Source: Embleya hyalina (lineage in GTDB: Bacteria; Actinomycetota; Actinomycetes; Streptomycetales; Streptomycetaceae). Taken from it: 64,000 bases of DNA. Shown here in pieces: positions 48,370 to 56,266 of this stretch. Where the stretch lies: contig NZ_BIFH01000054.1 of the NCBI RefSeq assembly GCF_003967355.1, positions 1 through 64,000 on the forward strand. The letters are read 5' to 3'. A program made the translations under genes and the position numbers. Below the pieces are notes generated by a model. The model was not told the DNA's origin. It did no database searches and saw only the letters and a list, made by a program, of their open reading frames with translations. How positions within the stretch are numbered: the first letter of the stretch is position 1; every line of letters starts with the position of its first letter.

Positions 48370-50007
48370 TCAGGCCGCGGTGCCGGCCGTCGCCTCCCAC
48401 GGCCAGCGTGCGTCCCGGCCCGCCTCCAGGAGCGAGACCATGGTGAACGCGGCGTCGGTCAGGCCGCCGAAGGTGTGCCGGTTGCGGCTGCCCGACGGGG
48501 CGTGCCCGGCCTGGTAGCCGGCCAGGTTCCAGGTGTACAGCGGAATGTTCGCCGGGACGGACCCGGTCACCTCCCGGGTGTCGTGCCCGGCCTGCTCGTC
48601 GGTGACGATCAGCACCCGGTCGTGCGCCCGATACTCCCGACGCAGCGCCAGAGCGGTGTCGGTACCGCCGCCCAGGAAGTAGCCGTCCTGCTTCCAACGG
48701 TCCAGCGAGCGCAGCAACGACTCGCCGCGACGCATCGGGTAGGTCTTCGTGTGTGCGCCGGGCTTGTCCTCCCAGTACCGCCGGGTGCTCGAGAAGGACA
48801 CCACGTCGGCGTACCCGCATCGCTGACCGATCGCGATGCCGAACAGTGCCGCCGCGTCCCAGCGCATCAGCGTGCCGTCCCGGGAGAAGCCCGACTCCAT
48901 GCTGGAACTGGTGTCCACCAGGATCAGCGTCCGCCCGGGCAACTTCGGCACGTTCGCCAGCGCGTGACCGAGCGCCCGCTCCAGCGGGTACGCCCAGCGC
49001 AGCGACGGCGCGGCACGGTGCGCGGACAGGAACCGGAACGGCAACTGCCGCGAACGCGCCACCTCTTCGGGATCCGCCAGCCTGGCCGCGACCCGCGCGG
49101 CGAGGACGTCGTCGACACCGGCCTCGTCGAAGTTGCGCAGGTTGCGCAGCAGCGCCATGTAGCCCATCGACGGAATCACCGCCGACCACGCCGCCGCGTC
49201 CATCGGCCCCTGGAGCCAACCCGCCAGCGCCTCCCAGGTGATGCCGGCGGCCCGCAGCCGCTCGGCCGCGTCGGGAGCGCGCAGCAGCGCCGCGCGCTCG
49301 GCCGCGGGCACGGCCATCAGCTCGGCGCGCGCGGTGAGCACCGGGTCCGACGCGGGCGGTGTCGCCGTGTCGGGGTGGTGCCGGCGATCGAGCGCGTAGC
49401 CGAACAGCGCGCCCTGCCACGGCTTGTCCGCCGCCGGGCGCGGGTGGGTCAGGTTGAGCACGTCGGCGAAGCGGTAGCCCTTGCTCGCGGTGTCGTACTT
49501 GAGCAGCGCGGGTGAGGTGTACAGCCGGCGCACGGCGTCCTCGATGCCGCGCTTGATCGGCTTGGGAATGGCCCGCCCGTACCGCGAAGTCCAGTAGCCC
49601 AGCAGCTCGCCGGGCTCGTCGGCGCGGCGCAACACCGCGTCCACCGCCCGGCGGGACAGCCCCGGCAGCCCGAACTCCAGGCGGGCGCGCGTCATTTCGG
49701 CGGCACCGACGATGGCGGCGGTACGCATGTAGGCGTCCCGGCGCAGCCAGGTGAGCAGGCCGAGCAGCCATTCGCCGTCGTACACCGCCAGTTCGTGGAC
49801 GAGCTGGGTGAACCGGTCGTCGCGGGTGCCGCCGCTCTCGTAGAACGTGTCGGTGCCGACGAAGTTCGCCACCGCGAGCAGGAACAACTCACTGCGCGCG
49901 TCGCGGGTGTAGCCGGTGCCGCCCTGGTGGGTGACGGTCTTCGGGCCCGTGCTGCGCACCGGCGAGACGAGGGCCGGACGGCTTCGGGGCAGGTTGAATC
50001 GAGACAT
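48370..50007 (-). CDS. rsr: Ro60 orthologue (TROVE domain + vWA), RNA-binding
   Basis: 545 residues. The N-terminal TROVE HEAT-repeat ring spans about residues 10-355; the C-terminal von Willebrand A domain has a full MIDAS (DTSSS 365-369, Thr in GGGTDT ~450, VTDE ~469). Bacterial Ro (Rsr) binds Y RNAs and, with PNPase, helps mature or degrade structured RNAs under stress (known from Deinococcus and Salmonella). Here the region directly upstream, on the same strand, folds as a tRNA-like Y RNA. ATG 50007 is preceded by GGGGGAT. No rtcB/rtcA is adjacent. Confidence 0.95.
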   Translation of the reverse strand: MSRFNLPRSRPALVSPVRSTGPKTVTHQGGTGYTRDARSELFLLAVANFVGTDTFYESGGTRDDRFTQLVHELAVYDGEWLLGLLTWLRRDAYMRTAAIVGAAEMTRARLEFGLPGLSRRAVDAVLRRADEPGELLGYWTSRYGRAIPKPIKRGIEDAVRRLYTSPALLKYDTASKGYRFADVLNLTHPRPAADKPWQGALFGYALDRRHHPDTATPPASDPVLTARAELMAVPAAERAALLRAPDAAERLRAAGITWEALAGWLQGPMDAAAWSAVIPSMGYMALLRNLRNFDEAGVDDVLAARVAARLADPEEVARSRQLPFRFLSAHRAAPSLRWAYPLERALGHALANVPKLPGRTLILVDTSSSMESGFSRDGTLMRWDAAALFGIAIGQRCGYADVVSFSSTRRYWEDKPGAHTKTYPMRRGESLLRSLDRWKQDGYFLGGGTDTALALRREYRAHDRVLIVTDEQAGHDTREVTGSVPANIPLYTWNLAGYQAGHAPSGSRNRHTFGGLTDAAFTMVSLLEAGRDARWPWEATAGTAA

Positions 50008-50038: not shown

Positions 50039-50189
50039 CAACGTCGAGGTGCCCGAGATCGAGGCGATCGGGCTTCAAGGCGCTCTACCGCTGAGCTACC
50101 GCCGGCGAACCGGCGACCGGGACTCGAACCCGGGACCACCCCAACAAAAGGAAGAATTCCCGGTCTGCGCACCGGGCACCCCGACGTTG
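50039..50189 (-). ncRNA. Y RNA (YrlA-like) with circularly permuted tRNA mimic
   Basis: On the minus strand, CAACGTCGGGGTGCCCG (50189-50173) pairs over 17 bp, one G-U wobble, with CGGGCACCTCGACGTTG (50055-50039). Inside, in order: a small CCCGG/CCGGG hairpin; T-arm CCGGG-TTCGAGT-CCCGG (50133-50117); acceptor-like TCGCCGG-TTCG-CCGGCGG (50116-50099), 7 bp; TA at the 8/9 position; D-arm GCTC-AGCGGTA-GAGC (50096-50082). This is tRNA order permuted, with the terminal helix replacing the anticodon arm: the known YrlA architecture. It ends 31 bases before the Ro60 ATG. RNA ends are approximate. Confidence 0.88.
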
Positions 50190-50487
50190 ATCCTCCCGAG
50201 ATCGAGATGACGCGCGGCGGTGGGACCAGGTCCCACTTCTGGGAAGGAAGTAGCCGCTCGTCCGCGCACCGGGAGGTGCGTTGCTTCGTGTTCGAAGCCT
50301 AGGGGCGCGGTACGGGTGGGCGACATCCATTTTTCGCGGCGGTGCGGAGGCGTCCCGTATGGGATTCCCGGTCTCGGGTGGGCGACCGTGTGGGTGGTGC
50401 GACGCTTGGGTGTATGAGCGTTTCCGCCGATCCGTGCGCCGCCGGCCGCACGATCCACCCCGACGGCCGGTGGTCGCGGGTGCGGGG

Positions 50488-55944: not shown

Positions 55945-56266
55945 CCCGGGACCGGGTGTCGTAGCGGACGAGCGTGGCCGTCGGGTCGGGTGACCCGGCG
56001 GCCGCGGCGGGTTTCGGCCTGGGGCCGATACCGCAAGAGTGGGTGACCCGCCGAGATCGAGGCGGCAGCGGAGACCGGGACTCGAGGCCCCGTACATTTC
56101 ACCGCCCTTGCGGGCTCCATGGAGTATCCGCGACCTGCGCACCGGGGGTCGGGCGAAACCGTAGCGCGCGAGGGCGGTTCGGCGCGCGGATTATCCGGCG
56201 GGGCGTGCCCGGGCCCGATGCGTAGGGGCCGACACGGCGGCCCCTACGGCCGGTCCTCGCCGAAGG
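55945..56266. other. Intergenic region with Y-RNA-like sequence blocks
   Basis: No gene. Between 56053 and 56146 three blocks recur in the same order and strand as in the Y RNA locus: GAGATCGAGGCG (56053), ACCGGGACTCGA (56074) and CTGCGCACCGGG (56135). On the minus strand hairpins GCCC-GCAA-GGGC and CGGG/CCCG (T-arm-like, loop GCCTCGAGT) can form. It lacks the D-arm and acceptor stem, so it is not called as an RNA. Confidence 0.35.

What the first reader, a model, noticed from the sequence alone, without database searches (positions are those of the whole stretch)
50039..50189. Circularly permuted tRNA mimic (Y RNA) directly upstream of the Ro60 gene
The minus strand can fold into a 17-bp closing helix (one G-U) that encloses a T-arm (loop TTCGAGT), a 7-bp acceptor-like stem capped by UUCG, a UA in the 8/9 slot and a 4-bp D-arm. 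These are in reversed tRNA order. This is the layout of YrlA-type Y RNAs, and the gene is 31 bases before the Ro60 ATG on the same strand. Seen: helices, order, linkage. Known: YrlA mimics tRNA and binds Ro via its terminal helix. Inferred: it is expressed and bound by this Ro60. The acceptor arm is closed, so it could not be aminoacylated.
Basis: partly seen in the sequence, partly recalled or inferred. Interest (0 to 1): 0.92.

Follow-up and report, generated by a model that had tools for sequence, protein, structure and literature searches.

The report
tRNA-mimicking Y RNA beside Ro60 gene
The stretch is a small non-coding RNA gene of a known kind (a bacterial Y RNA that imitates part of a tRNA), sitting just before the gene for its likely partner protein Ro60; around it we found two more Y RNA genes with the same stem but different heads, which suggests one protein served by several interchangeable RNA adaptors.

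Summary
A covariance model built without the window's genus finds it at 108.5 bits (E 7e-21). In 135 distinct relatives 96.3% of pair cells pair (shuffled 72.7%); 27 of 32 pairs show compensatory changes. It is a YrlA-type Y RNA: a new member of a known kind, below the cut-off of Rfam RF02553, as in all 101 family genomes searched.

(2) Of the 150 best family hits listed, 134 lie upstream of Ro60; 14 lie clearly elsewhere, all 14 (or their array) behind a -10-like hexamer, so this is not merely a Ro60 mRNA leader. (3) A third Y RNA in the window (56152-56044) shares the core but has a kink-turn-like cap, also seen in other genera. Expression and Ro60 binding are untested.

The parts
50039..50189 (-). 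Y3: Y RNA with permuted tRNA mimic (the given finding)
   Evidence: R1 126.3 bits (R1 contains it), leave-genus-out R3 108.5 bits over 50183-50045
50173..50189 (-). closing helix a, 5' strand (pairs with 50055-50039)
   Evidence: 17 bp, one G-U; inner pairs covary in relatives; the outer six pairs are also in L003, other relatives vary
50039..50055 (-). closing helix a, 3' strand
50166..50171 (-). internal loop of the stem, 5' side (UGCGCA), probable Ro60 contact
   Evidence: GGUGCG columns 94-100% in A3 and A4; binding itself inferred
50058..50065 (-). internal loop of the stem, 3' side (GCCUCGAU), probable Ro60 contact
   Evidence: GAU columns: G 94-100%, A 83-92%, U 65-89% in A3 and A4
50159..50165 (-). 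helix b, 5' strand (pairs with 50072-50066, one C-A mismatch)
   Evidence: (helices 2 and 3)
50066..50072 (-). helix b, 3' strand
50117..50133 (-). T-arm mimic, 5-bp stem, loop UUCGAGU
   Evidence: (helix 4, 99.8% of cells paired)
50099..50116 (-). acceptor-like 7-bp stem with UUCG cap
   Evidence: (helix 5, all 7 pairs with double changes)
50082..50096 (-). D-arm mimic, 4-bp stem, loop AGCGGUA
   Evidence: (helix 6, 99.0% of cells paired)
50192..50279 (-). Y2: second Y RNA, same stem core, no tRNA mimic
   Evidence: R2 69.6 bits, E 6.7e-13 in the window (R2 contains this sequence); own fold z -2.55; counterparts upstream of Ro60 in relatives
50296..50301 (-). -10-like hexamer TAGGCT, starting 22 nt before Y2
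   Evidence: TANNNT at -26..-6 in 85 of 110 clusters; no sigma-70-type promoter found by the simple scan; function inferred
48370..50007 (-). Ro60 / TROVE-domain protein gene
   Evidence: PF05731 E 5e-15; two solved TROVE-domain proteins match at E 9e-27
56044..56152 (-). third Y RNA, stand-alone, cap UGGA-GCCC-GCAA-GGGC-GGU-GAA plus degenerate T-arm-like hairpin
   Evidence: R2 35.5 bits E 1.3e-5, R3 34.1 bits E 1.5e-5, neither model contains it; counterparts L321, L322 at 35.5 and 34.9 bits; cap
56158..56163 (-). -10-like hexamer TACGGT before the third Y RNA
   Evidence: function inferred

Best explanation
50189-50039 (minus) is a YrlA-type bacterial Y RNA. Shown: the stem (helix a, conserved internal loop, helix b) and the permuted T-arm/acceptor/D-arm cap, both kept by compensatory change; linkage to Ro60; a second, mimic-less Y RNA directly before it; a conserved -10-like motif before the first RNA of such clusters; stand-alone copies elsewhere. 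Inferred: the array is transcribed from the promoter before Y2, possibly together with ro60, and cut into separate RNAs. The stem binds the outside of the Ro60 ring and gates it, while the cap sticks out as an adaptor. The tRNA-like cap is recognised by proteins that recognise tRNA elbows, or by a nuclease such as PNPase, so that Ro60 is steered to particular structured RNAs. The mimic-less Y2 would be a plain gate, and the third RNA would recruit a different partner. With the acceptor stem closed by UUCG it should not be aminoacylated as a tRNA. That it is a Y RNA that binds this Ro60 is about 0.88 likely; the specific PNPase tether about 0.35.
For: Leave-genus-out model 108.5 bits, E 7.3e-21. 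135 distinct relatives: 96.3% of 4141 cells paired versus 72.7% shuffled; 27 of 32 pairs with changes on both sides; slid controls 34-50%. 134 of the 150 listed best R1 hits in 200 family genomes lie within 2.5 kb upstream of and on the same strand as Ro60. R2 and Ro60 co-occur: 111 genomes with both, 2 R2 only, 13 Ro60 only, 74 neither; of the 13, nine have an R1 hit at E <= 1e-11 and the other four (G015, G093, G176, G202) only partial Ro60 matches. T-loop TTCRA in 129, D-loop CA..GG..A in 128, both in 125 of 135. Two Deinococcus plasmid relatives score 70.3 and 65.6 bits with R3. The human Y1 stem strands (GGCTGGTCCGAAGGTAGTG and CACTACTGCACTTGACTAGTC, seen in PMC3928194) have a like loop; the best-looking phage RNA that I picked (GGTGCGAAGGTAGCG in L041) agrees with GGTCCGAAGGTAGTG at 13 of 15 bases.
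Against: No expression or binding data. The score for the Rfam YrlA family is below its cut-off (37.2 versus 69). The vertebrate-type bulged C was not identified; here a U is bulged on the 3' strand. The window copy can form a competing hairpin over its own internal loop (CCCGGUGCGCAGACCGGG, 50176-50159). PMC4726728 calls bacterial Y RNAs not homologous to vertebrate ones. The alignments A3 and A4 were fitted to the structure, which favours the pair counts; the two outermost modelled pairs of helix a are unpaired in 35 and 43 of 135.
Confidence: 0.85

Rival explanations
1. A cis-acting leader of the ro60 mRNA: the structure controls translation or stability of ro60 (for example autoregulation by Ro60 binding) rather than acting as a free RNA.
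For: It ends 31 nt before the ATG, and the simple scan shows no terminator-like site between them; a quarter of the 134 Ro-linked R1 hits end within 52 nt of Ro60.
Against: 14 of the 150 best hits lie away from Ro60, alone or in arrays without Ro60 behind them, each with a -10-like hexamer before the RNA or its array; in 9 of 10 Catenulispora-like genomes the best mimic RNA is away from Ro60. Arrays put two or more such RNAs before one gene. The two roles do not exclude each other.
Confidence: 0.08
2. A tRNA pseudogene or a tandem-tRNA artefact that only looks permuted.
For: ARAGORN calls a tRNA-Gln at 50175-50109; tandem tRNA genes score about 41-43 bits with RF02553 and 34-40 bits with R3.
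Against: The tRNA calls at this RNA in three congeners are Gln, Ser and Ile, so no anticodon is kept; the window RNA scores 108.5 bits; its stem core, as conserved as the T-loop, is absent from the tandem tRNAs, which give at most 13.0 bits with R2.
Confidence: 0.02
3. A decoy: the mimic occupies a tRNA-cutting nuclease (of a phage or of a toxin system) and thereby protects tRNAs, with Ro60 only stabilising it.
For: Six actinophages examined carry Ro60-like genes with several Y RNA matches each, four of them with tRNA genes close by; PMC7790460 raises competitive inhibition of an anticodon nuclease as a possibility for YrlA (passage read).
Against: The mimic has no anticodon arm, the usual target; mimic-less RNAs share the array.
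Confidence: 0.07

Closest known systems
YrlA / bacterial Y RNA (Salmonella, M. smegmatis; Rfam RF02553)
   Same: 90-150 nt, basal stem from the two ends, tRNA-like domain with T, acceptor and D arms (PMC8394870), gene with Ro60/Rsr, a second Y RNA gene in the same operon in Salmonella (rsr-yrlBA-rtcBA, PMC7790460).
   Different: Scores below the Rfam cut-off; the Rfam model begins at helix b and lacks helix a and the internal loop; no RtcB neighbour (the one RtcB hit lies on another contig).
Deinococcus Y RNAs (RYPER complex)
   Same: In D. gobiensis and D. taeanensis plasmids a mimic-bearing RNA (R3 70.3 and 65.6 bits) and, by eye and with weak R2 support (23.0 and 16.9 bits), a mimic-less one lie before the TROVE gene.
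   Different: Their core reads about GGUGAAG..CGGUUCCUUC instead of GGUGCGCAGG..CGGUUACUUC.
Vertebrate Y RNAs (hY1)
   Same: Stem, short loop with U-C/G-C-G facing CUUGA, stem (sequence seen in PMC3928194).
   Different: Cap unrelated; a review calls the bacterial ones not homologous (PMC4726728).

Membership tests
YrlA-type bacterial Y RNA (as a class) | gene close to a Ro60/TROVE gene | tested here: met
   31 nt upstream, PF05731 E 5e-15
YrlA-type bacterial Y RNA (as a class) | basal stem formed by the 5' and 3' ends | tested here: met
   17 bp; 9 of 10 modelled pairs of helix a with double changes in relatives. The true ends of the RNA are not mapped.
YrlA-type bacterial Y RNA (as a class) | tRNA-like domain with T, acceptor and D arms in permuted order | tested here: met
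YrlA-type bacterial Y RNA (as a class) | Ro60-binding site with bulged C and opposing bulge (vertebrate definition) | tested here: inconclusive
   conserved internal loop present; the bulged base in the paired model is a U on the 3' strand
YrlA-type bacterial Y RNA (as a class) | bound and stabilised by Ro60 in the cell | not testable with these tools
   needs pull-down and deletion
YrlA-type bacterial Y RNA (as a class) | carries tRNA modifications (D, pseudouridine) | not testable with these tools
   described for YrlA in PMC8394870 (passage read)
Rfam RF02553 | score at or above the gathering cut-off of 69 bits | tested here: not met
   37.2 bits; 0 of 101 family genomes over the cut-off
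rsr-yrlBA-rtcBA RNA repair operon | RtcB gene in the same operon | tested here: not met
   only RtcB hit is on contig C30; the window is on C54
kink-turn (cap of the third Y RNA) | GA before the inner stem, three-base loop then GA after it (consensus recalled) | tested here: inconclusive
   sequence pattern in 11 of 11 chosen RNAs, drawn up after looking at them; the three-dimensional fold was not tested

The most novel reading that the evidence does not exclude
Ro60 of Streptomycetaceae is served by a set of Y RNAs with one conserved stem core and exchangeable caps, encoded in arrays before ro60 and as stand-alone genes: a permuted tRNA mimic, a plain cap, and a kink-turn-like cap (UGGA-hairpin-NNU-GAA) that my paper searches did not find described. 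The same cap appears on RNAs with different closing helices. The window holds one RNA of each kind (50189-50039, 50279-50192, 56152-56044), so that one ring protein may be switched between partners by choice of RNA.
Probability: 0.5. Interest if true: 0.68.

Novelty: new member of a known kind. Interest (0 to 1): 0.47.

Why it matters
What the tRNA-like cap of bacterial Y RNAs is for is, as far as I know, still open. Here nature offers the experiment: the same array carries a Y RNA with the mimic and one without, and other loci carry copies with a third type of cap, in soil actinobacteria many of whose relatives are tractable. The models made here also recover Y RNAs that lie below Rfam's cut-off throughout the part of this family that was searched.

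Tried and rejected
Rfam YrlA at the gathering cut-off gave nothing in the window. R1 matches in 181 of 200 genomes at E <= 0.01 are not all Y RNAs. Of ten loci fetched at RF02553 matches, eight from genomes without Ro60 and two (G002, G006) with it, nine are tandem tRNA genes (L332-L337, L339-L341: tRNA-Asn or tRNA-Ala by anticodon as I read it) and one is the L032-type locus. R3 gives such tandem genes 34-40 bits; the weak R1 hits are presumed to be of this kind. So the R1/R3 scores of the third Y RNA (34-35 bits) are not used alone; R2, which holds no tRNA-like part, gives it 35.5 bits and the tandem tRNA loci at most 13.0. The idea of a near-universal second permuted tRNA-like RNA in the family was dropped; only L032 and L338 were confirmed as such.

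A count of caps labelled some short RNAs as having a T-loop because UACUUCAA fits the pattern; it is not used. The exact pattern GGAGCCCGNAAGGGCGGTGAA is in 5 of 200 genomes. The looser pattern for the kink-turn-like cap (70 of 200 genomes) is mostly chance: the reversed control also hits many genomes. By eye 24 genomes have a hit with the Y core; I read the cap in full in 17, and one of the rest (G061) is inside a mimic RNA. Among the rows of A3 and A4 the cap is rare: 1 of 137 and 1 of 99, the same locus L181.

Of the 16 R1 hits classed as far from Ro60, one (G061) lies just beyond the 2.5-kb limit before Ro60 and one (G169) at a contig end; these two are not counted as orphans.

Chen 2014 (RNA), Wang 2018 (Structure; first with a wrong DOI) and Sim and Wolin 2018 are not held; what they report beyond the cited passages of others is recalled. 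Paper searches listed no work on Y RNAs of Streptomyces or on a kink-turn cap; apart (26 of 26 listed) only the top 5-20 rows of each were seen, and most subscription papers are not in that library. The main text of a Streptomyces RNA-seq paper (PMC3765725) holds none of the words Y RNA, TROVE, tRNA-like, Ro60 or Ro RNA.

Full report
What was checked. The minus strand from 50189 to 50039 was read and folded. MFE is -80.5 kcal/mol, z -4.15, none of 200 shuffles as good; without the outer 6 bp the 139-nt core reaches only z -1.80 (12 of 200). The downstream gene is a TROVE/Ro60 gene (PF05731 E 5e-15), start 50007.

Is it a Y RNA? Rfam at its cut-off finds nothing in the window. Without the cut-off RF02553 YrlA matches 50140-50079 at 37.2 bits, E 1.3e-6, but only the tRNA-like part. 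In several relatives the match runs over the full model, at up to 56.2 bits. No genome of 101 in the family passes the cut-off.

Relatives. Ro60 was found in 26 of 61 genomes, the own one included. Upstream regions read by eye show up to four tandem RNAs (L008) with one shared core: helix a, GGUGCGCAGG.., helix b, UACUUC, cap, then helix b', (C)UUGAUCUC, helix a'. Helix a differs between positions in an array (GUCCAG/CUGGAC; CCUCCCG/CGGGAGG; GUGCCC/GGGCAC). In the window the second RNA of this kind lies at 50279-50192, two bases before the given RNA, and has no tRNA mimic.

Models and covariation. From 17 mimic-bearing and 22 mimic-less RNAs models R1 and R2 were built; both contain the window's RNAs. 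A third, R3, leaves out the window's genus; it finds the given RNA at 108.5 bits, E 7.3e-21. R1 matches from 91 sources gave alignment A3 (137 rows, 135 distinct): 96.3% of cells paired versus 72.7% shuffled, 27 of 32 pairs with changes on both sides, slid controls 34-50%. R2 matches from 94 sources gave A4 (99 rows, 96 distinct): 98.3% versus 88.5%, 11 of 15 pairs; A4 includes mimic-bearing RNAs too. Both alignments were fitted to the structure. The T-loop and D-loop signatures occur together in 125 of 135. The stem core and the T-loop are the most conserved parts: GGUGCG 94-100% in A3 and A4, while the next A is 96% in A3 but 63% in A4.

Distribution and linkage. In 200 family genomes R2 is found in 113 and Ro60 in 124; both in 111, R2 only in 2, Ro60 only in 13, neither in 74. 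Nine of the 13 have a strong R1 hit; the other four have only partial Ro60 matches. Of the 150 best R1 hits listed (more were not listed), 134 lie upstream of Ro60 on its strand within 2.5 kb. Of the other 16 one is just beyond that limit and one at a contig end; the remaining 14 were fetched. L112 and L118 are arrays without Ro60 behind them, L119 is followed by the remains of a second RNA, and the others look single. A TANNNT hexamer lies close before the RNA or its array in all 14 (12, L115 and L118). Over all clusters it starts 26 to 6 nt before the first RNA in 85 of 110, against 3 and 1 of 110 in two control stretches. In ten genomes of a related family (Catenulispora-like by named relatives with equal scores, L020/L188; inference) each holds a mimic RNA at E <= 2.1e-15, and in nine of ten the best one is on another contig than, or far from, Ro60; several assemblies are fragmented. 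Clusters in the loci examined hold 1, 2, 3, 4 or 5 RNAs in 45, 38, 27, 2 and 1 cases; these loci were chosen for having Y RNAs. Yinghuangia seranimata L193 is identical over the Y RNAs to the unnamed L024.

Outside the family. Six phages of Streptomyces (3), Gordonia (2) and Arthrobacter (1) with Ro60-like genes have several Y RNA matches each, some weak, mostly before that gene. Two Deinococcus plasmids carry a mimic-bearing RNA and, by eye, a mimic-less one before the TROVE gene.

A third Y RNA. R2 and R3 both find 56152-56044 (35.5 bits, E 1.3e-5; 34.1 bits, E 1.5e-5); it is in neither model. It has the core, its own -10-like hexamer, and a cap UGGA-GCCC-GCAA-GGGC-GGU-GAA followed by a degenerate T-arm-like hairpin. 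Its fold alone is weak evidence (z -1.20, 25 of 200 shuffles as good). The nearest genomes keep it (86% and 78% identity; R2 35.5 and 34.9 bits). Of ten R2 hits away from Ro60 that I chose (94-113 nt, one of 74), eight have the same cap plan, six of these with other stem sequences; with the window and two congeners of identical cap that is 11 of 11 RNAs with UGGA, an uninterrupted 4-8-bp stem, NNU and GAA, a pattern drawn up after looking at them. The pattern occurs 6 times in 1.8 Mb of other loci, and four of these six are again in Y RNA cores (L171, L181, L206, L219). In A3 and A4 the cap is rare (1 of 137, 1 of 99). The resemblance to a kink-turn rests on a recalled consensus.

How it most likely works. 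By analogy with Deinococcus and Salmonella (PMC8394870, PMC4726728, PMC7790460; passages read), the stem sits on the outside of the Ro60 ring and the cap recruits or imitates. That Y3 binds this Ro60 is inferred from linkage and from the conserved core; what the cap contacts is unknown.

Known or new. The given RNA is a new member of a known kind. Chen 2014 (content recalled; its title was seen in reference lists) reported likely Y RNAs near Ro60 in many bacteria and phages. The stand-alone genes and the kink-turn-like cap were not found in print in the searches listed under tried and rejected, which cover only openly licensed papers and mostly their top rows.

Noticed in passing
window 56152-56044 (-): A third, stand-alone Y RNA with a kink-turn-like cap and a degenerate T-arm-like hairpin, kept in two congeners and, by cap, seen in other genera.
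   Followed up: yes
L032 1319-1620 (own genome, contig C24) and L338 (G002): Two permuted tRNA-like units behind a DUF7873 gene (PF25283 E 1.9e-119), without the Y core; the first has ACCA in the loop that closes its acceptor-like stem and, by eye, a possible anticodon stem (GCGGG/CCCGC). RF02553 gives 38.7 and 23.4 bits, R2 nothing. It could be a circularly permuted tRNA gene.
   Followed up: partly
L332-L337, L339-L341: Tandem tRNA genes score about 41-43 bits with Rfam YrlA because the T-arm of one and the D-arm of the next imitate a permuted tRNA: a source of false YrlA calls below the cut-off.
   Followed up: yes
L112, L118: Y RNA arrays with no Ro60 match behind them, in genomes that have Ro60 elsewhere.
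   Followed up: partly
L040 1204-1275, L038 1274-1347: An annotated tRNA-Arg of Gordonia phage VanLee and a tRNA-Ser of Streptomyces phage LuckySocke lie inside Y RNA matches and contain the UACUUC core: probably misannotated Y RNAs.
   Followed up: partly
window 50176-50159 (-): In the window and L003 the 5' part of Y3 can close into CCCGGUGCGCAGACCGGG, hiding the internal loop; most aligned relatives lack the partner bases.
   Followed up: no
L202 4358-4447: A MAG filed as Lachnospiraceae holds the exact Y core pattern, weakly scored by R2 (21.7 bits, E 0.053); possibly misbinned or mobile DNA.
   Followed up: no
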